Shown here in pieces: positions 968 through 54,705 of a stretch of DNA of 58,902 nt (position 1 is the first letter of the stretch; each line of letters begins with the position of its first letter). The translations under genes and the position numbers were made by a program. This DNA is from Jaenimonas drosophilae. Its lineage: Eukaryota; Euglenozoa; Kinetoplastea; Trypanosomatida; Trypanosomatidae. The notes beneath the pieces were generated by a model. The model was not told the origin of the DNA, did not search any database, and worked only from the letters and a program-made list of their open reading frames with translations. The stretch lies in the NCBI GenBank assembly GCA_030849065.1, contig JASAON010001582.1, forward strand, positions 1 to 58,902. Direction: 5' to 3'.

Positions 968-2506
968 ATGCACAAGGAAGATGATGCTGCCTCTACACCT
1001 GCGGAGAGGAGGGCTTCACTGCAGCATCGAACGCCAACCCGTGATGCATGCAATGGAGGATGTATACCGAGGAGGTTCTCCAACAACAACAACAACAACA
1101 ACAACAACAGTGTATCACCGTTCAGTCGTTTACCTTCGCGATCGCGTAGGCCGTTGCGGGCCGGACATCTTGCCCCACTCAGTGTGGATGATTTACGCCG
1201 TCACCACACACACTCCCTCGAACCTCCATCGACGCACGCATCCCTCAGTGCTCCAGCCCTACCCATCAACAACAGCAAAAACAGCGATTCCGTGAGCCAC
1301 AAGGCAGGCTCGCCATCTTCACTGAAGGGTTCTGCCTCTGGCACCAATCCCCGTCGAGGACGAAGTACATCGCTGCTCTCCTTCAACCATCATCACGTTG
1401 ATGGATGCCCACCGAGCCTGCGTACGCCGCGGCTTCCACCACTGCCACTTTTCTCGGATGTAAAGCGCTCATCCAGCACATCCTCACACGCTGATGCTAC
1501 CTTGACACATGCGGAGCCAACACACGTGATGGGCGCCGATGTCTCTGTTCTCTCGCCTACCTCCCCGGATGCACATCATGGCGATGGCCTTGTGGATCGC
1601 TTTACACCTCAACGTCATAGCCGTGGAGGCCTGCCAACCTTCTACGCACTACAACGTTCATGGTCTGGATGTAGCAACGTCCACGAGGATGCACATGATG
1701 GACGTACTCACGCTCCATTTGGCCGACGCAGCTCTCCACGGCGTAGCAGCCGCTCACAACATGCACAAGAGAGTGAAGAGATCTTCGTCGCGCTGAATCA
1801 TCGTGCACCGCCCATGACCATCACGGAAGTGCAAAATTTTCATGATTTTCTCCTCACGGGTGATGCGAAGTCGGCAGCGGTGCGGGGAGATGTAGATGCA
1901 CGTACGAGCGGCAGGAGCATCAGCTCCATCCTCATCTCACCGACTTCATCCAAGAGTGGCTCGAAACACGCAATTCGGCGTCGCAAGACACCGTGGTTGT
2001 TGGATCCCTCATCTTCTGACGCGCCAAGCATACAGCGTGGATCGAACAACAACAACAACAACAACAACACACAACAACCTCAACCAACTCCTGCCACGAC
2101 CCCTTCTTCTCCACGTACACGTGCCACAATGACACGACTATGTACATTCGCGACAGAGGAGATGGAGAAGGATGATGCCCCCCGACACCATCCAACATCG
2201 CCATCATCCGTGTTGATCTCCCCCAGATTGGCACCTCTGCGCTCATCCCCTTCCTTATCTTCCGCACGCAGCCCACGCGAACGATCGCTCTCATCTCGTG
2301 AACGTCTGGATGATTTTTTGGAGATGCATCATCATCCACACAAGATGCCAACCACCGTGGCTGGAGTACAACAACTTCACCGCTACCTCAACGACGGAGA
2401 TCGTGTGGCGGCTGACCCAAAACACATCATCTCTCCACGTCATCGGCGTGCATCCCGCAGGCGACGCTCCAGCGATGCACGTACTCCTCCTCCTCCATTT
2501 CGGTAG
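968..2506 (+). CDS. gene A: low-complexity protein with a duplicated about 33-residue motif, function unknown
   Basis: The protein has 512 residues. The frame is open further upstream (an ATG at 767), but that extension is Cys/Phe-rich, covers the T/C tract and candidate splice acceptor at 883, and looks like noncoding DNA. I therefore start at 968 (MHKEDD). Most of the protein is Ser/Arg/His/Pro-rich and probably disordered, with two Asn runs encoded by AAC repeats (about 1078-1109 and 2045-2067). Two segments look ordered and resemble each other: residues about 270-302 (EEIFVALNHR to FHDFLLTGDAKS) and about 446-482 (LDDFLEMHHH to LHRYLNDGDRVA). Both share an M-x-x-T turn, then VQxxHxxL and GD. 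The second half of each resembles the helix-like repeats of genes B and F. The C-terminus is Arg-rich (RRASRRRRSS) and ends PPPPFR. No signal peptide or membrane segment is visible. This is the first and one of the smallest members of the block. Confidence 0.82.
   Translation: MHKEDDAASTPAERRASLQHRTPTRDACNGGCIPRRFSNNNNNNNNNSVSPFSRLPSRSRRPLRAGHLAPLSVDDLRRHHTHSLEPPSTHASLSAPALPINNSKNSDSVSHKAGSPSSLKGSASGTNPRRGRSTSLLSFNHHHVDGCPPSLRTPRLPPLPLFSDVKRSSSTSSHADATLTHAEPTHVMGADVSVLSPTSPDAHHGDGLVDRFTPQRHSRGGLPTFYALQRSWSGCSNVHEDAHDGRTHAPFGRRSSPRRSSRSQHAQESEEIFVALNHRAPPMTITEVQNFHDFLLTGDAKSAAVRGDVDARTSGRSISSILISPTSSKSGSKHAIRRRKTPWLLDPSSSDAPSIQRGSNNNNNNNNTQQPQPTPATTPSSPRTRATMTRLCTFATEEMEKDDAPRHHPTSPSSVLISPRLAPLRSSPSLSSARSPRERSLSSRERLDDFLEMHHHPHKMPTTVAGVQQLHRYLNDGDRVAADPKHIISPRHRRASRRRRSSDARTPPPPFR
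1775..1876 (+). repeat. gene A motif copy 1
   Basis: Encodes EEIFVALNHR...MTITEVQNFHDFLLTGDAKSA. It is related to the segment encoded at 2303-2414 by the order of conserved positions: hydrophobic start, His pair, Met, Thr, VQ, His, Leu, GD, Ala. Confidence 0.6.
2303..2414 (+). repeat. gene A motif copy 2
   Basis: Encodes RLDDFLEMHHH...VAGVQQLHRYLNDGDRVAA, the second copy of the about 33-residue motif. Divergence from copy 1 is high, so this duplication is old, unlike the nearly identical repeats in genes C and E. Confidence 0.6.
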
Positions 2507-2999: not shown

Positions 3000-3031
3000 G
3001 TTTTCCTACTCCAAACCTCTTATCTCACTAG
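3000..3031 (+). promoter_or_regulatory. candidate spliced-leader acceptor for gene B
   Basis: The T/C-rich run TTTTCCTACTCCAAACCTCT continues to CACTAG, with the AG at 3030-3031. An alternative AG after a C-run lies at 2938-2939. Either would leave a leader carrying the upstream ORF at 3133-3210. Confidence 0.45.
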
Positions 3032-3132
3032 CACACACACACGCAAGACAGACGTTGATTGGCATCAACACAAAAATTGTTGTTGCCACTGAGATCACTT
3101 GTAGGATCATAGGTGCTTGTCTTATTCATCTC

Positions 3133-3234: not shown

Positions 3235-6200
3235 ATGCGAAGGAGAGGAAGACTTGCCGCACTTCACCGTCAACAAGAACAAGAACAACAACAAGATTCA
3301 TCTTCATCATCACGACGTGTGGGAAGTGATGGAACCAACATCTTTGATACGGAAGATGATCTAACCCCACGTACCGATCATCATCTCCCGTCATCATCAT
3401 CAGCATCTCTGTTGCCGCGACAACATGATGCTGATGTACGTAGCTCAAGTAGATGCAGAAGGCCACACGTGGATGAGTTTCAGACCTCCGCACGATTGCC
3501 TCCACCACGGCGCTCATCTTTTGCCTCCCATGATGTACTTCCTCGGCCATCATCACATCACCATCATCGTCATGTAGTAGCCGTGGATGCATCCAATGAT
3601 GATGATGTACGTCCCGACGGTGAATTGGGCCACACCTCCTCCATCGTATCCAGCAATCCTACACATGTTAGCCTCCGCAACAACAACTCCATCAACATCA
3701 GCGATCGAAGTAGCAAACATCGTGCAAGCATTGCTCTCGTGGAACACAATGTAGATGTACGTCCTCTTCCACGTTTGATGGATGATCAGCACAACCCCTA
3801 CTTGAAAGTGAGCCGACGGCAACTCAGCCATCATGATGCGTGGTACTACCATGACAACCATCGGCCGCACACCAACCATGTTGCACGTGTAGATGCGCAT
3901 GCACACGATGGAGATGGGGTGCGTGTGGGTGAGGACCACATGCCACGTAGACCGCGGAGCTCTCCATCTTGTGGCTCACGTGGATCATCACAACTTCTAT
4001 CTCACACATCCTTCAAGCACAACAACAACAATGAGTACCTTCCACCTCCGCTGGAGCACATCAGTGGTGGCAGCAACATGCCATCTACATCGATGCTCAC
4101 CGTGGAGATGAGCGCACAACATCCAAACCGATCAACGAGTGCCACATCAAGTTTGGCGGCGTTGTTGGCGTTTGCCAATCAGCTACAGCATGAGAAGGAT
4201 GCTTCTCATCATGATGATGATGTTGATGATCATGATGATGCTCACCAACATACGAATGACGACGGCAATGACTTTCATAGCGTGCGTGAGCTGATTGAGA
4301 TGCAACGTGTAGATCCCATCTCCTCCACGAGTACGTCATCACGAGCTCTAACATCAGCGTCTCTTTATGGTTCGTTGCACAAGAATTCCGCGGATGATGC
4401 GGCACGCAGATCATCTTCCTCGCCACCCCTGCTTCCATCCATGAAGATGAAGGCCGATGTTGAAACACACAGTGAGAAACATGATCATGGTACCACACAC
4501 CTCAGCACACCTCCGTTGATGGAGACGATGTCAATGGACGCATCACCACCCATGTTTGCCATGAATACGTGGATGGCAAAGAACACAACCCCCACACGAA
4601 ACAACAAGAAGAAGAAGATGAAGATGATGAAGAGTACAGACAAGAGCAACACACCTCCACGTCGCAGACTTACTGGGGTGTTTGGCCGAGGAACGCCACG
4701 GCGAAGCCCATCACGAATCACTCCGCATCGCTCATCTACCTCGCCACCACGTACGGGACGAGCATCAACACGTTCATCTACATCACCACCACATACACAC
4801 ACATCCAACAAGACGAAAGCACCAAAGCACTATACTGATGAGCAAATCCGCATGTTTGCGAAGCAACTCAAGGCTGCCGAGGATGCACGACGACGTGTAC
4901 GTGGAAATGATGTTGATGTGGCTCGACGACGGCGTGTGCATCGTGATGATGATGGTGATGATGATGATCTTCATCCAGCACGACGAACTCGTGCAGCAAC
5001 GGCATCTCCGCCAACATCTACTCAAGGCAAGACACCACCTACAGAGCCAACACCCTTTGCACCAACATCCACAATAGCATCATCATCATCATCATCATCA
5101 TCATCATTGCGTGCGAGCTACTCGATGGATGATATTCGCCAGTTTGTGCGAGAGTTGCGAAGGAAACACGCAAAAAAGGATGCTGAAAAACAGCATCACC
5201 ATCAACGTTTGCCAACTCCACGACGACGTACACACAATCATCATCATCACCATCTCTTGAATGATGATGTTGTGGTGGATGTAGATGTCGTGGATGCAGC
5301 CACCATGACATCTGCCACAGACACTTCATCACCACCAACTCATCATCACCATGTTGATGATCATGTGGAGCTGATGAGCTTTCTTCGCAACCTGAAGAAG
5401 GACGCAGATCTTTATCGTACATCAACGCAAACAACCACGACGAACAACAACGGCAGTGTACGTCATCATCCATCAACAACATCCTTCATCACGCATGATG
5501 CCGCTAACCTGCTCACAGACTTTGTTCGGCAGCTGAAGAAGGAGTCGGAAGATGATCAACGTGTGCAGCAACGTGCATCCACGAATGAAGACATCCAGGC
5601 GCAAACAACATCCACGTTGCATGAGCAAAACAACAACAACAACAACAACAATGATGATGATGATGATGATGATCGCGGTAAAGGCTCCGTGATGGAGCTG
5701 ATGCGCTTTCTACTTCAGCTCAAATTGGATGCAGATGCAGCACACCAAACACGCGTTGCTCTACAACAACAACAACAACAACAGCAACAAGATGTGGTTG
5801 TACGTCCTCGCAATGACGTTCATGATCCTCTCATGACGGAGGAGTCAAGTCGTTTCTTTGCTGCCACAACATCACTACGCATGATGAAGGATGCAGCCAT
5901 CAACACAACCGTTGACGTTGGCGTAGATGCAGCAAACCACAACAACAACACACAAATACATGAAGATGATGATGATGATGATGATGATGATGTGTTGATG
6001 ATGGATGGTGGTGAGTTGCCCACGCTCCAAGCATCACGTGAGGCACCACGTGTGCGTCCATCAACATCACCTCCGCTGACACACGAAAACTCCGAAGGAG
6101 GAGAAGTGGCACGTCTTCCTCAAGTTGCACAACAACACGATGATGCCCAACAACAACAACAACAACGACAACACGATGTTACTTTATTGATTGAGTCATC

Positions 6201-9200
6201 TACATCAATACCAAACATCATTGATGATGATGTTGTACGTCGCGTGAAGAAGTCTGCGAAACGCTCAACAACACTCACCACATCCACGTGGATTCACGCG
6301 GTTCCTCCATCATCAACATCACCACTCCATGACATGATGATGATGGATGTACCAACACGTCAACGGCAAGAGATGAGTCCTCTTGAAGCTGCACCTTCTC
6401 CCCTCGCGCAGAAATATTCACCAACAACATCACCGCAACAACAAGAACAACACTTGGTGCCAATTGTCTCTGACAACAACCATGTTGATGAAGATGATCA
6501 TGACTGCATCACTGCACCACATCTTGATGGTGTTGGTGTGATGGATGCCACACCCAAGGTAGCTCGTCCTCCATCATCATCAACAACAACACCTGCCGTT
6601 GTCGCAGATACAACTACTTCTACACACAACAATGATGATGTTGGTGAGTGGCGTGCTGCACCAGTGATGCAGGACGCTCTTCCTCCATCATCGTCTTGTG
6701 CCAACGTTGTTGCACGTATTCCTGACGTCCAGCAAAGACCTCTGACGCACCCTACACCAACACCAACAACAACAGCAACATCTGCACCCGACACTCTTGA
6801 ACGTACACGTCATGATGATGGTGATGAAGCGAAGGATGCACCACGAGTGAAGTATTCTCTGCCACCATCACCATCATCTGCATCCAAGGCTGATGAATGT
6901 ACTCGTGATGATAATGACGTTGGTACGAAGGAAGTATCATCACGGATGCCACCAACAACACCTCCATCAACATCAACAGCTGATGCACCGGTGATGAAGG
7001 TAGCTCCTCTACCAACAACAACAACAACATCAATATCTTCATCGGGAGAAACGGGCGTACGTGCGCGTGCTGATGATCTTGGCGAATTGATGAATACAGC
7101 AACATCACCATCAACAACACCTGCCAAAGCGCATCATGATGAGGTTGGTGCATCAAGGATGCAGGTAGCTCCTCTACCAACAACAGCAACAACAACAACA
7201 TTATCTGCATCGGAAGAAGAAGACGTACGTGCGCGCGTTGATGATCTTGGCGAGGTGATGAATACAGCAACATCACCATCAACAACACCTGCCAAAGCGC
7301 ATCATGATGAGGTTGGTGCATCAAGGATGCAGGTAGCTCCTCTACCAACAACATCTCCATCACCATCCACGATAACTCCTACGATCAGTGCGAATGAGCA
7401 CTCGCCTGTTGATGAACGCAACGTTGCACGCATGAATGATGGAGCACCAACATCATCGTCATGTACTACACAAGAACACGCATCAACATTGAATGCATCT
7501 CCATCAGCGCGTGCCAAGACCGCAACTCCTCCGCCAACAACATTAGAGGCCCTCGTTGATGATGTTGATGTTGATGCCAACCATGATCCTGACACAACTC
7601 TTGTTGGAGCACGCACATCTCCATCAGGTACTACTTCATTTTCAGCCAAACACGTGGAGATGAAAACAACACCAAACAATAGAGTCTCAACACCATCATC
7701 ATCAACAACAACAACGTGTGCATCTTCCAAACACGCAATCGCATCGATTGTGCCTGACCAAGAAGAAGCGCGCTCATCAACACATCCATCATCATCATCA
7801 TCATCATCTGCATGCCCATCGCGAAGTGATGGCAACGTCATGACACCAACAGCAGCATCACCCGCAACAACCACACGAGGTGTTGTTGATGATCAACATC
7901 CTCTTGCTGCCACATCTTCACATGAAGATGAACGTCCGCAGATGAAGATGATGGTTGACGACGTGCACGCACAAGATGATGATCACGGCGCGAATCATGT
8001 TCTCGATGCAACACTACGGCCCTCAGATAGTGGCCCTACATCACACTCACCTACACCAATGTTGGCGTATGATGATGAATCTGATGACGATGATGATGAT
8101 GATGATGATGACGAACAACATTCAACGTTGATGGAGCATCAATCATCACCGCCGATACGTCGCCCCTCGACGGCAACAGCGCCGCCGCCTCTTCCTCGCA
8201 GACGTGCTTCAAGAGACCTGTGTGCAGGTGATGATGATGATCATCATCATCATCATGAGCATACAAAACAAGAGAAGATGCGTGTAGATGATGCAGCAAG
8301 CACGTCTCCTCCACCCATGATGCGTGAAGATGGCATCAAGAACAACAGTCGTGCTGCACTACATATTTCATCAACGCATGTTGTTGGTCATCATCGCGAT
8401 GCACCAACAAACACAAACTCGGATGTTGTTGTTGTTGTTGATGAGCCACAATCACACGTGGCGATGAATGTACTCACCACACCAACTAGCGTTGATGATG
8501 ATGATGATGTTGGTCTTCATGACGTACAAACGCCATCATGGCCAACACACACAGCCGCACCAACTTCATCCACGATGAATGTACCACACAAGACTGCCGT
8601 GATGATTCCCATGCCACAACACCTCACAACTGAGCCAACGCACAACCATGCGCACGATGCACCAACACATGTTGTTGATGATGATCATCATCATGAAAAA
8701 CCTGCGGCACAATCATGTGATGATGATGATGATGAGCAACAACATCATGCACCAACCATGCCAACACTTCCAACGTGGAACGATGATGAAGTTGCTCATC
8801 GACGTCAGGATGATGTGTTCTATCTTCTCCCCAATGGGGAGTACCTACCAGCACATCGTCTGGATGCATACTTTGCAGAACAAGACGAACAACAACAACA
8901 ACAAATTCGTAACTATAGCGATGATGATGATGATGATGACGCAACAAACATGAATGAACGCCTACCACAAGATGCGTACCTCATCAGAAATGATGAGCGT
9001 CGCGGTGCTCAAGCGCACACATCTGTACCAAGCTCATCACATCATCAACATCGTCACTCAGCAGATGATGGCGATACAACGAGTACGTACACATCAACAC
9101 ATTCATCATCACCATCGCCATCAGCTCCTGTTGCTGATGATCCTCTTCAGCGAGCAAAGGACGGGCCACCACATCGTGTTGCCGTTGAGCAACAACAACA

Positions 9201-18914: not shown

Positions 18915-18945
<31 letters not shown>

Positions 18946-25267: not shown

Positions 25268-25419
25268 ATGGTGAAGAAGAAGAAGGTACAACGGCCTCGC
25301 GCCAATGCCCATCAACCACCACCACCACCAACAACGAAAACCTCCACGATCCAACGCAACACCCACAACAAGGGCCTAGACACACCAACCTCATCACCAA
25401 CGCATTACGATGAGATGGC

Positions 25420-25456
<37 letters not shown>

Positions 25457-31400: not shown

Positions 31401-31450
31401 CAGAAACAGATCATGAGGCACCTCCATCTACTGCAGCTTCTGCGCCACGT

Positions 31451-31481
<31 letters not shown>

Positions 31482-43500: not shown

Positions 43501-46500
43501 CATCATCTCCACGTGATGGAGTCATTGAGCTCTCTGAAAACTCATCGCAAATGAACGAAGACCACTCATCACGACGACGTACGAGTGCGGTACCAATTTG
43601 GCTGAGTGACATCCACAACAACAACAACAACAATGGTGATGGTGATAGAGGAACCTCCATTGTGCTGAGTCCATCACCGGTGCTGAAGATGGATCGTGCA
43701 TCCAGCGCCATTTATAGCAACAACAGCAACAACAACAACAATGGTGATGTGCATGACTCGCAACAAGAACCACAGCAACATCAAGAACCTCATCCATCGA
43801 TCTCCACGACGATTGCGAAACCATCAACCGTGGCACCACCTGGTGTAGCTCCACGTCGCAGCGATGTTATATGGCACTTTGATCAGGCTCCACCACCACC
43901 ACCATCATCAACGCATCCACAACAACAACAAAAACAAAATGTTGCACGTTTGCGTGATACGCCGCCGGAGCCTCTTCCGCCACACATCATCTTCTCGAGA
44001 CGCACGCCGACACAGGAAGAGATGGCGTCGATGCCAACTGAAGCGGATGATCATGAGCCCTACAACAACAACAACAACAACAACATGCATAGTCGCAGCA
44101 CCTATGATGATGCCCGTACATCGTCGATGGATGTGCCACACCTCTACAGCCCATCTCCCCCGCTGCCACTTCCGCCGCGCTATGGAGAGCTCAGCCCGAC
44201 ATCGAGCTCCGCCATGATGATTCATCGCCCATCAACGCCACCAAAACTTGAGCAACACACGCAAACATCGATGATTGTTGCGCCACCTCCACCTCCACCT
44301 CCTCCGTTGATGTGGGAAGTTGGCGCACAGACCTCCGATGACATGATGATGATGCCTGTAGAGCACAAGACGGCACCTCCATCAATTGCACGTACACATG
44401 CACCCGTGGATGTGTATGATCATGGCACACAAACAACACCTCCGTTGGTGCAGGACCTTCACGGAGATGCCCCAACGTGGATGGCGCCATCATTGCTCAT
44501 CTCACCACCACCACAACAACAACAGCAGCATTTTGCACCTCCTCCACGTGAGGTGCGTGATGGTGAAGCGCAAACATCTCCGCTCCTACCTCCACCACCA
44601 CCAGCAACAACCATGATGATGTTTCCTGGTGAGCCACAACCAATGATGCAGCACAACACAACACCAGAACCAATGTACGTGCCCCTGAACCAACCTCCAC
44701 CACCGCCAACGTTGGCAGATGTGCCACATTTGTGGGAGCGACCCACGCAGACATCGCCATTCTTGTTTCCGGAAATGATGATGATGATGCCGCCGCCTTT
44801 GATGCTCCCACACGATGAAGTTGTTCCAGATGATGGGTACATGCATGGCAGTGCATCGTGTACGACGGCGCCACCTCCTCCAGCACATGTTGCACCATAT
44901 CATGTGTTTGGTGATGATGATCATCTTCACTACGCTCCCCCACAACAGCAACAGCCAGAGCCTTTGTATGTGCCACAACAACAACAACAACAACCAGAGT
45001 CTTTGTATGTGCCACCACAACAACAACAACAACCGGAGGACCCATTCTACGCACAACAACAACACCAACATCCACAGGAGCCAATCTTCGTGCCACATCC
45101 ACCACCCTACGCACAACCACAACAACAACCAGAGCCTTTGTATGTGCCACCACCACAACAACATCAGCCAGATTCTTTGTATGTGCCACCACCACCACCA
45201 CAACAACAACAACAACATGAAGATGACGAAGTTTGTTGGTCTCAGCCGCCCATACCCGCGCACGCACATTCACCACACGCAGAGATGGATATGGTGCCTC
45301 ATGCACCGCTGCCATCATGGCAAGCACACGATGATGATGATGATGATGATGATGATGTTGCACATCAACCTGCACAACTCCCTCCTCCATCAACGGATAG
45401 ATATGCACCACATCCGCCAACCTGGAGTACGCCAGCCTACCCCGTGTACGCTGGCCATGATCGCGCGCATCCAGATAATGTGGTTGATGGAGCTCATGTT
45501 GATGATGATGATGGTGGTGGTGGTGGCTTGATGTGGGCCAACCCGCCGTTGATGCACAACAATAACAATAACAACAACAATAGTATCGTGGGTGGAGATC
45601 TTCTCAATGACGATGACGAAGACGCATCTCCGCCCTTGTACGTTCCTACCTACTACACACCACAGGAGGTGGTGGAGCAGATTGTGGTGCCTCATCTTCC
45701 ACGCGCTGATGTTGATGATGATGAGCACAAACACAGAAAACGTGGAAGAAACAAGGCCACCAACACACATCGTCCTCCAGAACATGAAGAGATGGGCATC
45801 CAAACACCGCGTGTACGTCGTCATGAGAAGTCTTGCAACACCAAAGTGGCTGCACCTCCGCCAACACATGAGCAAGGCACGCAATCATCGCGGAGTAGAT
45901 CCAAGAACAAGTACACGATGACGAGCAAACATCTCATCAAGTCGCTGATGGAAGAACATGATGGAGTATCATCACTAGACAAGAACAAGACGAAGAAGAG
46001 GGCCCCACGTACAACAACCTTTGAAGAAGAGGAAGATGATGATGCGCAACAACAACCACATCATCATCATCATCATCGTCATCGTCCAAATCCTTCGGCG
46101 GCAGATGATGTTGCTGCTCCATCCAAGACATCAACACGCACCAGCACCAAGAAGCAGAAGCAGGGTGAGATGCCATCTTCCTCGCCATCAACATCGAGTG
46201 AGGATCCCCGCCATGAACGTTCATCGCACCACACCAGACGAAGTAGCAGCAAACATGCCCAACAACAGCCAGACAACAAGAAGAAGATGCAGCAAGATGA
46301 TGCAACAGATCAAGTAGCACATCATCACCGCTATCCATCATCTACATCAACCTCCACCTCTTCAGCAGCTCGTCCTCAGTGGAGCAACTTCAGCTCTCCG
46401 CACGCATCACCCACGATGGAGCCTACATCACCACTCTGGCGCACAACAGCAACAACATCAGATCCGCACACACGCACACCACACGATGGCCAGTTGAGCT

Positions 46501-47108
46501 CACTACTCATCTCACCGAACAAATCACGCCTACACACACGAAACAACAAGCAGCCCACTTCCATCATCAACACCAGCAACAACAACAGGATGACGATGCC
46601 AACACGAACACAGGATGAGATGTACCCGGCGTACCAACCCGCACACCAACGTGGAGATGATGTTGATGATGGCGATGATGGTGATGATGTTGCATCGGCA
46701 GCCACGGCTCTTGCTATGGCAGCAGCATCCTTGGCCGCCCGCCTCAATCAGCAACAACAACAACAACAACCTCGTCAACCATCTGGACGACGTCATCCAC
46801 GTTCATCCGACATCATCAACAACAACGCCAACAACAATCGCAATCCTGAGTTGTCACTATCGGAAGATGATGATGACGATGATGATGATGATGATGCACG
46901 TGCACCTTCGCCGGTATCTCTCCCACCTTTGCTGAATACATCCAAACATGATGTTGATGTTGTCAGTAGTGGTGATGGCACACGTGGCAACGCATCCGTC
47001 TACGCACGTGGTGCATTTGAGCATGATGACGACGTACCTCATCCACCAACATGGATGGGCAAAGAAGATCAGTTTAAGCTCCTCAAGGACTTCTACAAGA
47101 AGAGATGA
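40521..47108 (+). CDS. gene G: Pro/Gln/Ser-rich giant protein with seven xQT motifs, possible LC8-binding scaffold
   Basis: The protein has 2195 residues. The frame is open from a GTG at 40494; the first ATG is 40521 (MSVYTDDDDDD). An N-terminal box, DDLLTRAQRQGLNDEEARYL, resembles part of gene E, followed by TLEDIQSISSRMFPGG. Residues about 200-700 are Ser/Arg/Lys/Thr-rich with Lys runs. From residue about 950 the protein turns Pro-rich. Between residues about 1244 and 1790 lie HTQTS, GAQTS, GTQTT, EAQTS, PTQTS, GIQTP and GTQSS, spaced mostly 20-60 residues apart. LC8-type dynein light chains bind such QT-centred motifs in disordered chains; here that is inference. Residues about 1470-1570 have repeated PE-x-LYVP units with Gln runs. 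A His/Lys-rich part follows, then an Ala-rich helix (ATALAMAAASLAARL) near residue 2065. The end reads HPPTWMGKEDQFKLLKDFYKKR. No membrane segment is seen. Confidence 0.85.
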   Translation: MSVYTDDDDDDSHMDAQLHGSSSPLETKPSHDDSSTSSNHNNSNNHHHDHEEDEDDEEDDASSWASIEEQHLHLGDQDENKYIKTLQHRDDLLTRAQRQGLNDEEARYLKPQRVRASHHPTSSSPTSSNVSVDRSIMPQTLEDIQSISSRMFPGGDQVASSRPSPSMEKSPTHSLQTSETHDDDDVDDDDVGVREGPLDGVPVLMSRESSARTTSTASPRDAPRKRSKKTNSKKNHHNDDDDDDQHLRTNNNNNKKLIKKTSLPMTSARRPSRRGSSRGAAPHPPTHINDTKQKKDGRRRTSAPRRSSAAASTSSPTSPPIINTVSAFSSPRQRTSSTEQQQQQQQQSLHMSPDRRSKVVMLSPSASSRTEPSRRSLSDAPTSTRNKNNEKKKKKKKMLSASPDRSSSSSSRRRASSLPSSNPSSSRRRSSSKEEAPNVSPPPPPPPTTTTTTTSKKKKKKRTSTTSPPSTSQQHRAPRTSIGSVNSSKSARSRSSSTSSTKGSKRRSSSPSTTTTQSSSSTPTTTTTTAVKQPTTSRSSSDGTQPTHPRRTPSSASSRDDEKAGRRPTPPSTLIHAHPTTSTSSTTSPPVAISSPPPPPANIAETPPPRAEMPSTSSLTEKKKKAVKKTKNDVVVDDDEPVSPGSVRSRRRTATPETSSILADDDDDDVNASPRDGLGSTRKPSIEMKDEMPSSRSTTSTSSSPRHHFPQLETRPSTVEPLRNHSGRTTSTPKHNNNNNIHDDVGEFEEEHDAPRAAARRRTPTPTQEKTKAQTSARTSPDNNNTKKKESINNRKKDDQAPQPAASSPSPSSSLHATPTTSPTSRRRAEDARRHASLTPFGEDDADPLTTTTTRKKKKKKNAARGDAPVDVLAPSFIVSSPQKSEYGDDARPPLPISNNNTTHGSLPSSSSQHHDDVGAAPLGHTSSRSYHPIELSPRATEDLISPRHAHVVDAEPPLPPPPPSPPSVVVAPIVLYVVPQSQPKSATPATSSTSSPRDGVIELSENSSQMNEDHSSRRRTSAVPIWLSDIHNNNNNNGDGDRGTSIVLSPSPVLKMDRASSAIYSNNSNNNNNGDVHDSQQEPQQHQEPHPSISTTIAKPSTVAPPGVAPRRSDVIWHFDQAPPPPPSSTHPQQQQKQNVARLRDTPPEPLPPHIIFSRRTPTQEEMASMPTEADDHEPYNNNNNNNMHSRSTYDDARTSSMDVPHLYSPSPPLPLPPRYGELSPTSSSAMMIHRPSTPPKLEQHTQTSMIVAPPPPPPPPLMWEVGAQTSDDMMMMPVEHKTAPPSIARTHAPVDVYDHGTQTTPPLVQDLHGDAPTWMAPSLLISPPPQQQQQHFAPPPREVRDGEAQTSPLLPPPPPATTMMMFPGEPQPMMQHNTTPEPMYVPLNQPPPPPTLADVPHLWERPTQTSPFLFPEMMMMMPPPLMLPHDEVVPDDGYMHGSASCTTAPPPPAHVAPYHVFGDDDHLHYAPPQQQQPEPLYVPQQQQQQPESLYVPPQQQQQPEDPFYAQQQHQHPQEPIFVPHPPPYAQPQQQPEPLYVPPPQQHQPDSLYVPPPPPQQQQQHEDDEVCWSQPPIPAHAHSPHAEMDMVPHAPLPSWQAHDDDDDDDDDVAHQPAQLPPPSTDRYAPHPPTWSTPAYPVYAGHDRAHPDNVVDGAHVDDDDGGGGGLMWANPPLMHNNNNNNNNSIVGGDLLNDDDEDASPPLYVPTYYTPQEVVEQIVVPHLPRADVDDDEHKHRKRGRNKATNTHRPPEHEEMGIQTPRVRRHEKSCNTKVAAPPPTHEQGTQSSRSRSKNKYTMTSKHLIKSLMEEHDGVSSLDKNKTKKRAPRTTTFEEEEDDDAQQQPHHHHHHRHRPNPSAADDVAAPSKTSTRTSTKKQKQGEMPSSSPSTSSEDPRHERSSHHTRRSSSKHAQQQPDNKKKMQQDDATDQVAHHHRYPSSTSTSTSSAARPQWSNFSSPHASPTMEPTSPLWRTTATTSDPHTRTPHDGQLSSLLISPNKSRLHTRNNKQPTSIINTSNNNRMTMPTRTQDEMYPAYQPAHQRGDDVDDGDDGDDVASAATALAMAAASLAARLNQQQQQQQPRQPSGRRHPRSSDIINNNANNNRNPELSLSEDDDDDDDDDDARAPSPVSLPPLLNTSKHDVDVVSSGDGTRGNASVYARGAFEHDDDVPHPPTWMGKEDQFKLLKDFYKKR
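44941..45220 (+). repeat. degenerate PE-x-LYVP / poly-Gln repeat in gene G
   Basis: Units read PEPLYVPQQQQQQ, PESLYVPPQQQQQ, PEDPFYAQQQ, PEPLYVPPPQQHQ and PDSLYVPPPPP. The period is 13 to 30 residues. CAA runs make the Gln spacers. A single related phrase, PEPMYVP, occurs upstream near 44669. Confidence 0.75.
45330..45357 (+). repeat. (GAT)9 run encoding poly-Asp in gene G
   Basis: A pure GAT run read in the Asp frame. It is typical of dozens in this window; the other two frames would give Met runs or TGA stops. Confidence 0.8.
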
Positions 47109-47894: not shown

Positions 47895-48824
47895 ATGCCC
47901 AACACCTCTCCTTCCGACTTCACGTTGAAGAGCATCCTCTACCTGCCAGAACACAACCTGATGTATGATGATGTGAGCCACAACAACGTTGCTGCACATC
48001 AACGTGTACGTGAGCATGATGATGTTGTGCTGAGATCGGTGCAGCACATCTTGCATGAGGATGATGATCTCCGTCTCTTGTCGTCCGAGTCTGTGCGTAC
48101 ACGCAAACTTCAACAAGATGCAGTTGGTGTTGGTTATGATGATGATGATGATGATGATGATTTTGATGATCAGCATCAACGTTCATCACGTCCAAATCTG
48201 AGTCATGAAAGCTCACTCACCTCATTGGATGAGGAAGACGTGATGCACGATGGTATTGTGGTGGATAATAATCATATACATCAACCTACTGTGTTGATGA
48301 GGATGGTGGATGTACGCACACCGGATGTGTTGGAGCCCAACACGCCTGCACGTCAGCAACGCACGCTAACATCAACACCGTCTCGACGTCCACGGAAAGT
48401 TGTCTTTGTTCTGGAGAATGATGATGGTGTTGGTGTGACGCATCCTGTTGGTGATACTTCATCTCCATCTTCACACAACAACAACGAGAACGAGAACAGC
48501 GCGGTGTTCCTGACTTCATCACCAACGTCGTCCCACTTGCGGCAACCGTTGTGGATGCAACGACGTCAGCACGCGAACATGTTTTCTGAACCATTCACGC
48601 CATTCTCATCACAAGTTATGAGCCACGGTGAAGAAGATTCTTTTGATGGTGGATGCATGAAAGAGGAACTCCTCCGCGCGCATCTTCACCCATCAACGTT
48701 GTGTTGTCATGGCAGCATGGAACCACCAATGATCGCTTCACACCAACTTCAACGTCAGCATGAGATGAAGATTTTGGATGTGTTGCGTGCATCCGTGAAT
48801 CGATGCCGCCGACAACACAGATGA
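47895..48824 (+). CDS. gene H: small Asp/His/Ser-rich protein of the block, function unknown
   Basis: The protein has 309 residues and is the smallest of the block. The frame is open from a GTG at 47838, but that part translates the T/G-rich leader; the first ATG is 47895 (MPNTSPSDFTLKS). The N-terminal 80 residues look partly ordered: LKSILYLPEHNLMYDDV, then VVLRSVQHILHEDDDLRLL, which resembles the helix-like repeats of genes B and F, then SSESVRTRKLQQDAVG. An Asp run (GAT repeat) follows. The middle has RRPRKVVFVLENDDG, and the C-terminal part has MFSEPFTPFSSQ and a last predicted helix, HQLQRQHEMKILDVLRASVNRCRRQHR. There are fewer homopeptides than in the larger genes. No signal peptide or membrane segment is seen. 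It may represent the least expanded form of the family. Confidence 0.8.
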   Translation: MPNTSPSDFTLKSILYLPEHNLMYDDVSHNNVAAHQRVREHDDVVLRSVQHILHEDDDLRLLSSESVRTRKLQQDAVGVGYDDDDDDDDFDDQHQRSSRPNLSHESSLTSLDEEDVMHDGIVVDNNHIHQPTVLMRMVDVRTPDVLEPNTPARQQRTLTSTPSRRPRKVVFVLENDDGVGVTHPVGDTSSPSSHNNNENENSAVFLTSSPTSSHLRQPLWMQRRQHANMFSEPFTPFSSQVMSHGEEDSFDGGCMKEELLRAHLHPSTLCCHGSMEPPMIASHQLQRQHEMKILDVLRASVNRCRRQHR

Positions 48825-49605: not shown

Positions 49606-52600
49606 ATGGATCACTACTACGTACATCCAAGCTCATCAACTGCTCACGTCTTTCATCTCTACAGCCAACAGCACGCATCGCTGCACTACCAACATGATGG
49701 CCACTACGTACACGATGATGTTGATGATGATGATGATGTTGTTGGTCTCTTCGAGTCACGGCTGAGTCGTGCCCTCGGCAGAAATGATCGAAGACTGGCA
49801 CAACAACAACAACGTCAGCGACCTCATCCTCCACATCATCACCATGTTTCATCAACAACATCCATGGCGAAACAGATGGAGGAACTCTGCCCCTATCATC
49901 GATCTGTGATGGAGGATGCGCGTCATCGTCATCATCAACGTCATGAACATCGTGAAAATGATCATCATAAGCGACGGCAACATCGCCGATCTTCACGCAA
50001 ATATGATGATGATGATGATGATGATGATGAGTACGTACATCACCGCCAGCCGCACATTTGTGGTCACCATCGTCATGGTTGTGGCGCCACTTCAACAACA
50101 ACAACATCATCGTCTTTTGTACTTCCCATGTTGCAGTGCAGAGCGCGTGCATCAACCGTAACTGCATCTGCACCTCCACGTCGTGTTGCGACAGAGGAGG
50201 AAAAGACGATGCTGTTGCCACTGCCGCAACACGGATACCGTCATGCGGAATTGGTTGAAGAAGGAACGGCAGGACGCTTGTTTCCTGAGTTTGAAGTGCT
50301 GCGCGAACACTTCATGTTGCCACAACAACAACAGCAACAACAACAGCGTGCGGAGATGAAGACGGATGATGATGGTACAACACCAACATGCAAACATCAT
50401 CATCGTCGTCGAGGAGAACAACACTCATCCACGAAGGCACGTCATCAACCAACGAGCGCGCACTCAGAGAAACAGAAGCCTGCTCCACGCCAACCATCAA
50501 CACAACGCACATATGAATCATCTTCATCGTCAAGTCGAAATGATGATAAGGATGATGATGGTAGGTGCGTGCACCAAACACAACAACATCGGCCACACGT
50601 ACAGAGCCCATCTACAACAACAACATCATCATCAACGAGCAGCTCACCACTTTCATCCAACACCACAAGTAGTGCAGATGCAGCACACTCCCCATCATCG
50701 TCCACCTCATCCAGCGAGGCTCCACAACCAAAGGTTCTTCATCGATATGATATTCACGTTATGCATCACTCATGCAACAACTCCGATGATGTTGATGTGT
50801 GTAGCTCCAAATCATCCAAGAATAAAGAAGAACGCTCATTGCAGAAACGTGTCCCGCAGAAGCTCACTAGCCGATCAACACAGACACCTCGCGACACACG
50901 TGATGATGATGTTGTTGTTGTTGCACCTCCAACAGCACAAGATGTGGTTGTGAAGGATGTACGTCACTCATCACCTGATGTGGTGGCATCTCCTCCACTC
51001 CGTGCCAGCTCCATATGTGAGCCTGCCTTCTCACCTCCACTTGTGCAAACAACACAATCTGAGCTCACGCCATCATCCATGCACCACCACGATCCGCACG
51101 ATGATGTGGTGGATGAGGCTTCTGTTGTTGTGGTTGCTGCATCTCCCGACGAAAGTGCCACGTTGGCTGATTTGACGGTCATCGCCACCGCCTCCTTTGC
51201 ACCAGAAGTCGGAGTAGATGCGCTACAACAAGAAGGGCACCATATGAACGTACTGGATGATGATGCATACGTACATGATGTTGTCGCAGAGGAGGATCCA
51301 CTGAATGATGATCTCTTCGACGACGTTGTTGATGATGCTGGTGATGATAAAGATGAAGAAGAGCTGATGGCGGCAACTGCACGTACCCCACCACCATCTC
51401 TCGCCGCCTCCACAACCACCATCGAAACAACAACTGTGGCCACAACAACCACAACAACAACAACATGGATGGAGAAGGAGTTGGTGGCAGATGGCATCTC
51501 CACAGGAAGGAGCAGCTCCATTCATTTACTCTCACCCGTGAGCTCCAGCACACATGGTGCTGTAACGCTGCTTCTCCCAGACTCGAGCACCAGCAGTGGC
51601 AAGATGACGGTGCACAAGAATGATGGCTTGGAGAAGGATGTTGTGGCATCTGAAGAAGGTGATGGTGATGCATCCAGCCGTGCACGTACACAACAAGAAC
51701 AAGAGCAATGTGCCACAACAACCACACCAAGCACAGCGTCCACCTCACCACAACCACAGTTTCCGAGCCCTAGCCAATCCACCTCCATCGCCAACTGGAG
51801 CAACATCTACGGCAGGTGTTTATCGGGCAGTGAAGGAACGGGTGCATCCGCCAACAACGCCACCATCATCACGTCGGATGAGCTCAAGCCGCAACCTCTG
51901 CGGGCAGTGGAGGTGTGCCAACCTGCTGTGGTTGTGTTGGATCCATCAACATCATCAACTACAACAACAACAACTACCACGACTACTACTACATCTGGTA
52001 GAAGGATTAATGCAGATACTCATGTACCGCCGAGTCCTGGGATGGAGATGAGCCCACCCGCCATCAACGCCCCCTCAACATCATCATCCACACCAGCAAC
52101 AACATCAAGTGTGGCACCTGTTCAGATTTATCGAGACGTTGTTGTACCATCCGGCCACATCAACTCACTCGATAGCTCACCACTTCAATCATCTTCTCAT
52201 GTACGACGGATGCTTCCGACGAGTGCGCGCCGCGACTCATCCACGCTGGTTGCGCGCAGTGATGCAGAGAGCCGTATTCCGTGGCAATCCGCATCTACAC
52301 AACTTCCACACGGAGAAACACCACGTCTCTCTGACGTTGCCATGTCGGGAACGATGGATGATGTTCTTGACGTACCCCCACACAGCATCCAGAACAACAA
52401 CAACAACATTCAACGTGTAGATGATGATGATGATCATCCGCAAGAGGAACCACTTCACACCTCCTCACAATCAGCCTCCTTGATGGAGCACCACACCGCG
52501 AAGAGCACATCACCATCCGTTTCGCTCCATCCCGAAGATCATCCAACACCTACTCCACTTGCGGGGGAACATGTTGGCACACAGCTCAACGCACCCAGTG

Positions 52601-54705
52601 GTGCCTCCCCAGCAACCACAACAACACATTCAGTACCTCTTCATGCAATGGCCATCACCGACCAGCCACGTCTGGAGGATCTGCAAGTGGTGGGATCTAC
52701 GCGAGACATCACGGAAGCATCACCAACAACAACAACAACAACACGCCAGCCGCCTGCACCCACGGCAAAGAAGGTGGTCAAGCCTCCCTCCCATCATCCC
52801 CCACGTCAAAAGCGGCCAGCGCGCAACACACAGCCGTCATCACCACGAGCATCCGCCACACCACTGGATTTGTCTGTGCATGGAAGTGCGCCAACAACAA
52901 CAACAACAGCATCATCACCATCAACGATGGCACCAACAACAGCCAAGGCAGCTCCACCTCCACCCGCCAAGAATATCAAGAAGAAGAAGATTATGGAGAT
53001 GAAGAAGGTGGCCAACACGGTTGTACAGCCCGCGCCTACCTCTGATGATGATGATGATGATGACGATGATGATGATGATGGCAGTTCCACCAACTCACCA
53101 GAGGAGAGCAGCAGTGAATCCAGCTCCGCGGAAGAAGAGGAAGAACAGGCCTCCACAGAGAACTCCAGCACCGCTCAGACCCCCAGTTCTGCAACTGTTG
53201 CCACGAAAACATCATCATCATCATCTTCATCCAACTCTACGGAGGAGTCATCTAATCCGCACACCAACACCTCATCTCCCGCCATAGCCACAACCACAAC
53301 GAACAAGCAGCCACCGGTGTCAGCCAAGACGAAGGCCAAGGCCAAACATCCTCCGCCACGTACATCTTCCAAGAAGCTGAGTTCCATGGTGCCTAAAAAG
53401 AAGGTGGCCAACAACGTCTCGAGCAGGTCCACTTCATCAAATGCAGGTACAACAACAACAACAACACCCGCATCTCCTCCCTTCACACAGAAGAAAAGAA
53501 AACAGCCACCGCATACGCCATCCACGAAGAGTTCAGCACGTTCGGCCAACTCGTACAGCGCGAGGAGCCCATCTGCCACCTCAGCCCTTGAGCTCCCGAG
53601 TACATCTACACCGGCGAGTGTGATGGAGCTCCATCCATCTGCCTCATCATCAACTCCTCTGACAACCATGAAGAAGCCACCAAACAACACACCCAACAAG
53701 GTGCCAGTTTCAGCAGGTGTCGTGGCACCATCGTCATCATCATCACGCAAGGTGAAGAAGCCGCCCGCACACAACATCATGAAGAAGGCTCCTCGTACCT
53801 CGCCAAGAACCTCCACGAAGAAGCAGCCACCTCCATCGTCAACCAACAACACCCAATTACCAATAACATCGCGGTCCGAGAGTAGTGAGCCCGTCGTGGC
53901 ATCACCTCTGCTTCCATCATCTTCATCGCCCTCCACACACAACACACAAGGCACGATGTCGGGCTCCGCCAACGACCACACAAGAGATCCATCCACCTCA
54001 CCACTTACAACAACACTTATAACGAAGACGAAGGTACCCTCACGCTCATCAAGCAAGGCAAGCCGATCCAACTCCGTCAGCGCGCACAACAACTCCGAGC
54101 ACATGCTGCCGAGTGCAGCCTCCACCTCTGTTGAATCTTCGCCACCTTCTGGATCTCCTCCTGTGGGAGTAGTGATGGCGGATGCACCGCAACAACATCA
54201 ACATCAGCCAGCCCAGCCCACCCAACCACATATCCCTGACGTATCTCCCCGACATCCTCCACGGAAGAAGTCCAGTGCTGACGAGGTGGATGACGATCAT
54301 CTCCGCAACAGCGCCTTGTACGAAGATGATGGAGCACCCACGCATCCAACCTCCACCATGGAAGATAAAGAGGAAGATGATAGTTCCGTGGATGGGGATG
54401 CCGAGGATGAGGCATCACCCACCGCCACATCATCATCTCCGTCCTACTCAAGCAGCTCTGCCGAAACAGAGGCCAGCCTCTTTCAGCCGCTGCACTACTA
54501 TGCCCCCGCCAGCAGCTTGACGCTCTCCCAGCAACGGCTGAATGGAGGCTCATCCTCCCAGCCTGCCATCACCACAGACAACACAGGTGATGGTGCGGAG
54601 CCCAAGACGAAGGAGGGTGAAGTGGATGTGGATGGTGATGACGACCAACAACAACAACACCTTAAACTTGCGGCTATGCATACGGCGAAGCCGCACCACG
54701 TGTAG
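49606..54705 (+). CDS. gene I: large Ser/Thr/Pro/Lys-rich protein, last of the low-complexity block
   Basis: The protein has 1699 residues. The frame opens at a GTG (49603) directly before ATG 49606 (MDHYYVHPSS). Residues 1-70 are Tyr/His-rich, then GLFESRLSRALGRNDRRLA. Residues about 90-170 are His/Arg-rich with scattered Cys (ELCPYH, CGHHRHGCG), too irregular to call a metal-binding domain. Near residue 220 an ordered-looking stretch reads LVEEGTAGRLFPEFEVLREHFML, followed by a Gln run. The centre is Ser/Thr/Asp-rich with Thr runs and includes STQTPRDTR, an xQT motif as in gene G. From residue about 1040 it becomes Lys/Pro/Ser-rich with an acidic run of about 10 Asp and SSSESSSAEEEEE, resembling a nucleolar or chromatin-type acidic/basic patchwork (inference). 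Near the end is SLFQPLHYYAPASSLTLSQQRL. No MNFS, YWPYLSP or RHGFWGEA box is present, so membership in the family rests on composition and position. Confidence 0.83.
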   Translation: MDHYYVHPSSSTAHVFHLYSQQHASLHYQHDGHYVHDDVDDDDDVVGLFESRLSRALGRNDRRLAQQQQRQRPHPPHHHHVSSTTSMAKQMEELCPYHRSVMEDARHRHHQRHEHRENDHHKRRQHRRSSRKYDDDDDDDDEYVHHRQPHICGHHRHGCGATSTTTTSSSFVLPMLQCRARASTVTASAPPRRVATEEEKTMLLPLPQHGYRHAELVEEGTAGRLFPEFEVLREHFMLPQQQQQQQQRAEMKTDDDGTTPTCKHHHRRRGEQHSSTKARHQPTSAHSEKQKPAPRQPSTQRTYESSSSSSRNDDKDDDGRCVHQTQQHRPHVQSPSTTTTSSSTSSSPLSSNTTSSADAAHSPSSSTSSSEAPQPKVLHRYDIHVMHHSCNNSDDVDVCSSKSSKNKEERSLQKRVPQKLTSRSTQTPRDTRDDDVVVVAPPTAQDVVVKDVRHSSPDVVASPPLRASSICEPAFSPPLVQTTQSELTPSSMHHHDPHDDVVDEASVVVVAASPDESATLADLTVIATASFAPEVGVDALQQEGHHMNVLDDDAYVHDVVAEEDPLNDDLFDDVVDDAGDDKDEEELMAATARTPPPSLAASTTTIETTTVATTTTTTTTWMEKELVADGISTGRSSSIHLLSPVSSSTHGAVTLLLPDSSTSSGKMTVHKNDGLEKDVVASEEGDGDASSRARTQQEQEQCATTTTPSTASTSPQPQFPSPSQSTSIANWSNIYGRCLSGSEGTGASANNATIITSDELKPQPLRAVEVCQPAVVVLDPSTSSTTTTTTTTTTTTSGRRINADTHVPPSPGMEMSPPAINAPSTSSSTPATTSSVAPVQIYRDVVVPSGHINSLDSSPLQSSSHVRRMLPTSARRDSSTLVARSDAESRIPWQSASTQLPHGETPRLSDVAMSGTMDDVLDVPPHSIQNNNNNIQRVDDDDDHPQEEPLHTSSQSASLMEHHTAKSTSPSVSLHPEDHPTPTPLAGEHVGTQLNAPSGASPATTTTHSVPLHAMAITDQPRLEDLQVVGSTRDITEASPTTTTTTRQPPAPTAKKVVKPPSHHPPRQKRPARNTQPSSPRASATPLDLSVHGSAPTTTTTASSPSTMAPTTAKAAPPPPAKNIKKKKIMEMKKVANTVVQPAPTSDDDDDDDDDDDDGSSTNSPEESSSESSSAEEEEEQASTENSSTAQTPSSATVATKTSSSSSSSNSTEESSNPHTNTSSPAIATTTTNKQPPVSAKTKAKAKHPPPRTSSKKLSSMVPKKKVANNVSSRSTSSNAGTTTTTTPASPPFTQKKRKQPPHTPSTKSSARSANSYSARSPSATSALELPSTSTPASVMELHPSASSSTPLTTMKKPPNNTPNKVPVSAGVVAPSSSSSRKVKKPPAHNIMKKAPRTSPRTSTKKQPPPSSTNNTQLPITSRSESSEPVVASPLLPSSSSPSTHNTQGTMSGSANDHTRDPSTSPLTTTLITKTKVPSRSSSKASRSNSVSAHNNSEHMLPSAASTSVESSPPSGSPPVGVVMADAPQQHQHQPAQPTQPHIPDVSPRHPPRKKSSADEVDDDHLRNSALYEDDGAPTHPTSTMEDKEEDDSSVDGDAEDEASPTATSSSPSYSSSSAETEASLFQPLHYYAPASSLTLSQQRLNGGSSSQPAITTDNTGDGAEPKTKEGEVDVDGDDDQQQQHLKLAAMHTAKPHHV

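What the first reader, a model, noticed from the sequence alone, without database searches (positions are those of the whole stretch)
968..54705. A tandem block of nine giant low-complexity genes that share hidden short boxes
Nine consecutive same-strand genes (309 to 3399 residues) look at first like unrelated Ser/His/Asn/Asp-rich ORFs. Reading the non-repetitive islands shows links: C and D share the FPPVSEY module, the MNFS box and YWPYLSP; B has weak forms of the last two; B and E share RHGFWGEA; A, B, F and H share a helix-like repeat; E and G share a DEExxYL box. I do not know a described family with this combination. It could be a lineage-specific set of disordered scaffolds that grew by tandem duplication and triplet expansion.
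Basis: partly seen in the sequence, partly recalled or inferred. Interest (0 to 1): 0.85.

Follow-up and report, generated by a model that had tools for sequence, protein, structure and literature searches.

The report
Giant disordered protein family, unnamed kinetoplastid
A single-celled flagellate carries tandem arrays of very long, floppy, repeat-rich proteins that look unrelated but share short conserved pieces, which suggests a previously undescribed family of linker or scaffold proteins.

Summary
The nine same-strand ORFs are real. The shared-box idea is largely right, but for five of the nine genes, and it reaches beyond the window. With shuffled and unrelated-ORF controls, C and D are clear paralogues (FPPVSEY, MNFS, YWPYLSP); E carries the MNFS box (weakly) and, with B, the C-terminal RHGFWGE tail; B and F share an amphipathic-helix repeat. 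Not supported: MNFS/YWPYLSP in B, the helix repeat in A and H, the DEExxYL box of E and G. No link was found for G, H or I. The same boxes recur on three other contigs (C35, C94, C229) in similar giant low-complexity genes; A has a clear relative there. Conserved islands show synonymous excess; homopeptide runs are mostly pure-codon microsatellites. None of the nine has an evident membrane segment or a Pfam match. One conserved gene places the genome in a kinetoplastid not close to a named species in the database. Best reading: a family, perhaps lineage-restricted, of soluble sticker-and-spacer scaffolds with disordered spacers, helix repeats or FPPVSEY modules, and often a basic C-terminal arm ending in a docking box. 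The mechanism is inferred, not shown.

The parts
968..2506 (+). gene A, 512 aa; related to c2 on contig C229
   Evidence: masked BLASTP A-c2 E 1.9e-16; genome search E 2.4e-16
1808..1909 (+). A motif copy 1 (PMTITEVQNFHDFLLTGD...)
   Evidence: HMM built with it, A and c2 only
2342..2434 (+). A motif copy 2 (MPTTVAGVQQLHRYLNDGD...)
   Evidence: A-c2 BLASTP segment E 2.1e-4; HMM built with it
3235..13434 (+). gene B, 3399 aa
5356..5418 (+). helix repeat 1 of B
   Evidence: 4.1 bits with the C94-only HMM, within the range of unrelated ORFs; range
5494..5562 (+). helix repeat 2 of B
   Evidence: 3.5 bits with the C94-only HMM, within the range of unrelated ORFs; range
5683..5748 (+). helix repeat 3 of B
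   Evidence: 8.1 bits with the C94-only HMM, above the best unrelated ORF 6.8
13360..13416 (+). C-terminal RHGFWGE tail of B
   Evidence: 35.1 bits with an HMM built from other contigs only
14374..19122 (+). gene C, 1582 aa
15145..15300 (+). FPPVSEY module 1 of C
15736..15909 (+). FPPVSEY module 2 of C
16237..16410 (+). FPPVSEY module 3 of C (501-bp tandem copy)
16738..16911 (+). FPPVSEY module 4 of C (501-bp tandem copy)
18583..18684 (+). MNFS box of C
   Evidence: BLASTP C-D E 6e-11
18979..19119 (+). YWPYLSP C-terminal mini-domain of C
   Evidence: BLASTP C-D E 3e-7, C-a2 E 5e-8
20303..24652 (+). gene D, 1449 aa
21104..21271 (+). FPPVSEY module 1 of D
21608..21763 (+). FPPVSEY module 2 of D
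22160..22306 (+). FPPVSEY module 3 of D
22613..22759 (+). FPPVSEY module 4 of D
24101..24199 (+). MNFS box of D
   Evidence: genome search matches C35 a2 at E 1.5e-28 over MNFS to tail
24509..24649 (+). YWPYLSP C-terminal mini-domain of D, predicted four short helices
   Evidence: BLASTP D-a2 E 2.6e-9; AlphaFold2 pLDDT 77.6
25268..34417 (+). gene E, 3049 aa
33827..33880 (+). MNFS box of E
   Evidence: 10.2 bits with the C/D/a2 HMM; best of 100 shuffles 6.7, best unrelated ORF 6.7
34340..34393 (+). C-terminal RHGFWGE tail of E
   Evidence: 29.1 bits with an HMM built from other contigs only
35469..40259 (+). gene F, 1596 aa; paralogue of C94 gene b1
35886..35951 (+). helix repeat 1 of F
   Evidence: 7.2 bits with the C94-only HMM; AlphaFold2; range
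36072..36140 (+). helix repeat 2 of F
   Evidence: 15.1 bits with the C94-only HMM; AlphaFold2
36255..36317 (+). helix repeat 3 of F
   Evidence: 3.7 bits with the C94-only HMM, within the range of unrelated ORFs; AlphaFold2
36717..36782 (+). helix repeat 4 of F
   Evidence: 14.7 bits with the C94-only HMM
37491..37601 (+). F island AELR..INTIIAKRLLRR, 75% identical in b1
   Evidence: E 5.9e-11
39990..40034 (+). RRKPPLP box of F, shared with b1
   Evidence: within a BLASTP segment of E 8.7e-8
40521..47108 (+). gene G, 2195 aa; same composition, no detectable homology
47895..48824 (+). gene H, 309 aa; no detectable homology
49606..54705 (+). gene I, 1699 aa; same composition, no detectable homology

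Best explanation
Genes B to F, with relatives on contigs C35, C94 and C229, are members of one modular gene family of giant soluble proteins in an unnamed kinetoplastid; A is probably an associated member. Each protein is a long disordered chain, kept flexible and variable in length by triplet slippage. It carries selected short docking pieces: repeated amphipathic helices (B, F, b1 to b4), FPPVSEY modules (C, D, a3), and in 9 of the 19 array proteins (B, C, D, E in the window) a terminal box of RHGFWGE or YWPYLSP type, mostly behind a basic C-terminal arm. It most likely works as a sticker-and-spacer linker: the basic arm and terminal box anchor the chain to a shared acidic partner, such as the cytoskeleton or a ribonucleoprotein, while the repeated helices or modules bind several copies of a client. 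Shown: shared boxes, paralogy, synonymous excess in the islands, no evident membrane segment, mostly pure-codon runs, local helix prediction for part of F. Inferred: disorder (from composition and low pLDDT between helices), soluble location, anchoring, client binding.
For: Masked all-against-all BLASTP of 20 proteins: 42 cross-protein segments at E<=0.1 in 20 protein pairs (12 of the 42 are C-D), against 6 segments in total over 20 local shuffles. Boxes learned on other contigs score high in the window: tail in B and E, helix repeat in F and one copy of B. The RHGFWGE DNA pattern with 1 mismatch allowed gives four places in 18.8 Mb, all exact and all at C-termini of giant genes; the backward control gives 1 per strand. 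Fourteen island comparisons, 566 codons: pS 0.62, pN 0.26. Runs of 5 or more: 143 in 15,790 aa, mostly one codon. The nine window proteins never exceed 1.51 in 19-residue hydropathy. The last fifth is basic at p<=0.0085 in 7 of 9 proteins with a terminal box. AlphaFold2 on F residues 130-290 gives three helices that cover the three repeats there, with linkers under pLDDT 50. Helical moment of 21 repeats 0.468 against 0.276 +- 0.029 shuffled.
Against: G, H and I show no link. C/D-type and B-type C-termini could not be joined (hhalign probability 0.1). No partner, localisation, transcript or peptide is known. b5 (p 0.90) and b3 (p 0.07) carry the terminal box without a significantly basic last fifth. 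Three of the seven window helix copies score no better than unrelated ORFs. The islands used for dN/dS were chosen because their proteins are alike, which lowers dN, and pairs among C, D and a2 are not independent. The helix repeats were first picked by eye for their pattern. Passages of PMC13309793 say that the low-complexity repeat-rich cluster of kinetoplastids tends towards defined structures.
Confidence: 0.42

Rival explanations
1. Flagellar or cortical cytoskeleton proteins: projection-type microtubule-associated proteins, in which the basic C-terminal arm binds acidic tubulin tails and the rest of the chain forms a brush that spaces filaments.
For: Basic C-terminal fifth behind a mostly acidic or neutral body in B, C, D, E, a2, b1, c1. 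[quoted passage not shown]
Against: No Pfam domain; PDB sequence searches gave nothing for F and only E 0.12 for the tail profile.
Confidence: 0.25
2. Nuclear or RNA-granule proteins: disordered chains with Arg-rich arms that bind nucleic acid and help to form condensates.
For: Arg-rich C-terminal arms; such sequence types are common in condensate proteins (general knowledge).
Against: No RNA-binding domain found; nothing here separates this from the cytoskeletal reading.
Confidence: 0.2
3. Nearly neutral, slippage-driven ORFs with little function; apparent boxes are remnants of duplication.
For: Homopeptide runs are nearly pure codons; sequence between islands is hard to align; G, H and I show no conserved box.
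Against: Synonymous excess in islands; frames of B and E open over 9 to 10 kb despite slippage; F and b1 keep islands in the same order.
Confidence: 0.08
4. Secreted or surface mucin-like arrays comparable to proteophosphoglycans.
For: Ser/Thr/Pro-rich giant tandem genes in a kinetoplastid; a gene that I read by eye as GP63-like lies near the C229 members.
Against: No hydrophobic N-terminus or membrane-like segment in any of the nine by hydropathy (no dedicated predictor was run); conserved C-termini are charged and aromatic.
Confidence: 0.05

Closest known systems
Sticker-and-spacer linker proteins such as diatom PYCO1 (PMC10288592, title and abstract start in a search listing) and algal EPYC1 (recalled)
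   Same: Disordered chain with several copies of a short motif; in B, F and b1, b2, b4 the motif is an amphipathic-helix repeat.
   Different: No sequence relation shown, client unknown; here a multigene family with extra C-terminal boxes and proteins of up to 3399 residues.
Low-complexity repeat-rich protein cluster of Trypanosoma and Leishmania (PMC13309793, passages including part of the abstract)
   Same: Kinetoplastid, repeat-rich; signal peptides less frequent; enriched in flagellar-related proteins.
   Different: That is a statistical cluster, not a homologous family, and is said there to tend towards defined structures; the boxes found here are not in the passages seen.
Bodonins of Bodo saltans and related surface families (PMC4728078, passages)
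   Same: Large multi-copy kinetoplastid family.
   Different: The largest bodonins have a predicted extracellular and a multi-pass transmembrane domain; none of the nine window proteins has a membrane-like segment.
LC8-hub disordered proteins such as ASCIZ (PMC5963919, search listing)
   Same: G and a1 hold several QT-type motifs; one loose GxQ pattern is enriched over the 20 proteins (32 against 14.4, highest of 500 shuffles 26); the genome has 8 dynein light chain loci.
   Different: The defining TQT count equals chance (11 against 11.6) and the ELM-type pattern is 2 against 1.1.
Neuronal MAPs and tau (recalled)
   Same: Projection body with a basic, Pro-rich C-terminal region.
   Different: No sequence relation known; microtubule binding untested.

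Membership tests
Sticker-and-spacer linker proteins (functional class) | Several copies of a short folded motif separated by disordered spacers | tested here: met
   For F: repeats by a C94-only HMM and AlphaFold2 helices with linkers under pLDDT 50 for residues 130-290. For B only the HMM (one copy above all controls); b1, b2 and b4 supplied the model. Spacer disorder outside this part of F is inferred from composition.
Sticker-and-spacer linker proteins (functional class) | Stickers bind a client and drive clustering or phase separation | not testable with these tools
   No client known.
One paralogous family of all nine genes | Shared homologous boxes above chance | tested here: not met
   B, C, D, E, F form a connected set, F partly through b1 of C94; A is linked only to c2; G, H, I are not linked.
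Proteophosphoglycan or mucin-like surface arrays | Signal peptide and GPI or membrane anchor | tested here: not met
   Largest 19-residue hydropathy among the nine is 1.51 (G, internal); no hydrophobic N-terminus. No dedicated signal-peptide or GPI predictor was run.
Bodonin family | Multi-pass transmembrane domain | tested here: not met
   definition from PMC4728078 passages.
LC8-hub multi-TQT proteins | Enrichment of TQT-type motifs | tested here: inconclusive
   Seven patterns tried on 20 proteins: TQT 11 against 11.6 and ELM-type 2 against 1.1 are chance; a loose [GA]xQ pattern is 32 against 14.4. Nominal TQT enrichment in a1 (p 0.004) and G (p 0.07).
Any Pfam family | Match over or near the gathering score | tested here: not met
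   0 families at E<=1 for all nine and for the right-flank ORF.
Kinetoplastid-wide conserved protein | Homologues in other kinetoplastids | tested here: inconclusive
   None found for D (residues 255-1449) or F+b1 at E<=1 although the database holds kinetoplastids; candidate lists were capped. A, B, C, E, G, H, I were not searched there.

The most novel reading that the evidence does not exclude
A lineage-restricted kinetoplastid gene family, spread over at least four contigs, encodes giant multivalent linker proteins that share interchangeable stickers (helix repeat, FPPVSEY, MNFS, RHGFWGE, YWPYLSP). Members swap and homogenise these by conversion and unequal exchange while DNA slippage tunes the spacers: an expandable scaffold or condensate toolkit not described before.
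Probability: 0.3. Interest if true: 0.65.

Novelty: new variant of a known kind. Interest (0 to 1): 0.5.

Why it matters
It shows that apparently unrelated low-complexity giant genes can belong to one family once the non-repetitive islands are read, and it gives concrete boxes checked across contigs. If the sticker-and-spacer reading holds, it offers a natural set of paralogues in which sticker number and spacer length vary, useful for testing how disordered scaffolds evolve.

Tried and rejected
LC8-binding ladder: TQT motifs equal chance over the 20 proteins (11 against 11.6), although one loose GxQ-type pattern among seven tried is enriched (32 against 14.4, highest of 500 shuffles 26). Kept only as a weak lead. 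Unifying the C/D tail with the RHGFWGE tail: hhalign probability 0.1. C274 hit of the B C-terminus: E 0.0012 over query 9-84 of 122, that is, outside the tail, and nominally better than the hit to the window's own gene E (0.0026). I left it out because its neighbours are ordinary-looking genes, not an array, and because it has an F-box-like stretch by eye; that is a judgement, and a relation is not excluded. The C229 match, weak over the whole query (E 0.73), was kept because the exact RHGFWGE pattern is there. E-G DEExxYL: chance. C-G BLASTP at E 0.95: not counted. RKPP box in b5: 9.1 bits, but an unrelated six-frame ORF reaches 9.2 and one shuffle 13.7. PDB by sequence: none for F; tail profile only E 0.12. 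Foldseek of the D tail: best E 4.4. Spliced-leader pattern: no exact match. Paper searches for the four box strings: 0 papers; six topical searches gave no title or abstract start, among the papers listed, that describes this family. The weak C100, C140, C227, C280 and C338 hits were not followed.

Corrections made when checking: my notebook and the print-out say 21 proteins; the set had 20, of which c0 is an unrelated membrane protein kept as a bystander.

Full report
Setting. It is a kinetoplastid. The protein kinase A gene of contig C55 has its three best matches in unnamed contigs (83-85% identical). The best named matches are Bodo saltans (79%), Trypanosoma theileri (78%), Leishmania species and Phytomonas EM1 (76-77%), and a shorter Strigomonas culicis sequence at 81% over 84% of the query (best 120 of 3582 listed, 7989 candidates scored). 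By this one gene the species is not close to a named one in that database, and Bodo and trypanosomatids are about equally far. A gene on C229 looks GP63-like by eye.

Observation. The nine ORFs exist as described: A 968-2506, B 3235-13434, C 14374-19122, D 20303-24652, E 25268-34417, F 35469-40259, G 40521-47108, H 47895-48824, I 49606-54705, all on +. Pfam gives nothing at E<=1 for any of them or for the right-flank ORF. Their bias is stronger than in 26 control frames (the longest open frame of each of 26 other loci, not checked as genes and not a random sample): homopeptide runs of 5 or more average 1.2 per 1000 residues there and S/H/D/N/T/P/Q make up 0.35; in the 19 array proteins without c0 they average 6.0 and 0.54.

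Links. With low complexity masked, BLASTP within the window links C to D many times (best E 6e-24), B to E through the tail (9e-4) and C to E through the MNFS box (0.001). Genome searches brought in other giant genes: C35 (a1, a2, a3), C94 (b1 to b5, minus strand) and C229 (c1, c2); a3 and c2 are cut by the end of the contig or of the fetched stretch. All against all, the 20 proteins (nine of the window, eleven of the other contigs, c0 included) give 42 cross-protein segments at E<=0.1 in 20 pairs, 12 of them C-D. Twenty rounds of local shuffling gave 6 segments in total, best E 0.021, counted in both directions. The strongest links between contigs are A-c2 (2e-16), F-b1 (5e-14), D-a2 (5e-12) and b1-c1 (5e-5).

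Independent tests of boxes. An HMM for the helix repeat built only from 14 repeats of C94 finds seven copies in the window at 2 bits or more, four in F (15.1, 14.7, 7.2, 3.7) and three in B (8.1, 4.1, 3.5). One hundred shuffles of the nine proteins average 0.02 and reversed proteins give 0. A harder control, 953 six-frame ORFs of 26 other loci (113,212 residues, seven times the window proteins), gives 10 at 2 bits or more, best 6.8. So three copies of F and one of B stand out on their own; the others are supported only by lying in series with them. A second HMM that includes the window copies still does not reach A or H. A tail HMM built only from b1, b3, b5 and c1 scores B 35.1 and E 29.1 bits, both at the extreme C-terminus; the best of 100 shuffles is 4.6 and of the unrelated ORFs 4.9. 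The FPPVSEY HMM, built from C and D copies, finds one more on C35 (a3, 14.1 bits; best shuffle 5.2). The MNFS HMM, built from C, D and a2, finds E more weakly (10.2; best shuffle and best unrelated ORF 6.7). The YWPYLSP HMM finds only its own C, D and a2, not B. The E-G box is no more than chance. The RHGFWGE pattern, one mismatch allowed, occurs at four places in the genome, all exact, in B, E, b1 and c1; the backward control gives one per strand. The KPPIPPP pattern occurs only in C and D, with one hit of the backward control. The FPPVSEY query finds only the eight C291 copies, the F island only F and b1, the A motif only A and c2. Nine genome searches with family seeds give four contigs that I accept, plus weak hits that I did not follow and the C274 hit that I left out by judgement. 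This is a lower bound, since the first look did not return the known repeats of b1, b3, b4, B and F.

Protein-level selection. Fourteen island comparisons between paralogues, 566 codons, give pS 0.62 and pN 0.26, bootstrap range of the difference 0.30 to 0.42. The islands were chosen by protein similarity and some genes enter more than once, so the numbers are indicative. The first FPPVSEY module of C and D has dS 0.41, where the MNFS box of the same two genes has 1.03 and the tail is saturated, which suggests a later exchange or conversion. In C the sequence repeats at 501 bp with near identity over some 600 to 700 bp, and E holds a 459-bp repeat of 2.2 copies at 97%.

Spacers. There are 143 homopeptide runs of 5 or more in 15,790 residues. 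Most are dominated by one codon: TCA for Ser (83% in runs, 35% elsewhere), GAT for Asp (95, 84), CAA for Gln (93, 67), AAC for Asn (92, 68), ACA for Thr (85, 49), CAT for His (97, 58); Pro (CCA 73, 54) is less pure and the single Arg run is mixed. That points to triplet slippage of DNA rather than selection for each residue.

Architecture and mechanism. None of the nine has a membrane-like segment or a hydrophobic N-terminus by hydropathy (no dedicated predictor was run), so a soluble intracellular place is the simplest reading. In seven of nine proteins with a terminal box the last fifth is markedly basic (p<=0.0085; exceptions b3 p 0.07, b5 p 0.90); A, G, H and I show no significant trend, F is borderline at 0.011. 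AlphaFold2 on F residues 130-290 with b1 gives three helices that cover the three repeats there (ten-residue pLDDT means 72 to 91 over the repeats, the first helix running on beyond its repeat) and linkers with means of 41 to 49; mean pLDDT 64.3, pTM 0.23. The 21 repeats have a helical moment of 0.468 against 0.276 +- 0.029 when shuffled (they were picked for their pattern). The D tail is predicted as four short helices, pLDDT 77.6, without a significant fold match. I therefore favour a sticker-and-spacer scaffold anchored by its basic arm and terminal box. Disorder, anchoring and client binding are inference. [quoted passage not shown]

Limits. Searches with D and with F+b1 found no homologue at E<=1. 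The database does hold kinetoplastids, but only 7979 and 7952 candidates sharing most words were scored, and low-complexity words probably filled that list, so restriction to this lineage is not proven; the other window proteins were not searched there. No transcript or peptide evidence was available. Literature: passages of PMC4728078 and PMC13309793 were seen; the other papers only in search listings. A full-text search for four box strings found no paper.

Noticed in passing
window 57843-58902: Right-flank ORF, open at the contig end, with 12 copies of a 45-bp repeat (PGQAAQPGGQPQQ[AV]Y type); the contig breaks inside it, perhaps for that reason. No PDB relative for its first 138 residues.
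   Followed up: partly
window 55296-55727: Small + strand ORF (MEFHHKKLPLWVSRPTD...) of ordinary-looking composition between the array and the right-flank gene.
   Followed up: no
window 40521-47108 (G) and L028 242-5710 (a1): Repeated GTQT/GAQTS-type motifs resembling LC8 ligands: TQT p 0.004 in a1 and 0.07 in G; a loose GxQ pattern is enriched over all 20 proteins, C, G and a1 above all; 8 dynein light chain loci in the genome.
   Followed up: partly
L028 242-5710 (a1 on C35): Four copies of an [AS]SPY[VT]P[AT]R[PV]G[SA]R motif in an Arg-rich region.
   Followed up: no
FPPVSEY modules of C, D and a3: Y-[YF]-S-x-L is kept in all nine copies and Y-S-x-L, a YxxPhi-type sorting motif (recalled), in eight of nine; could be chance.
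   Followed up: no
C229:31977-33818: Gene that reads by eye as a GP63-like metalloprotease (HEILHGLGF) with a hydrophobic tail, close to the C229 family members.
   Followed up: no
C229:34470-35723 (c0): Protein with an N-terminal membrane segment next to the C229 array; no link to the family.
   Followed up: partly
C274:37003-41406: Ser/His-rich 1467-aa protein with an F-box-like stretch by eye; matches the B C-terminus at E 0.0012 outside the tail; left out of the family by judgement.
   Followed up: partly
   Followed up: partly
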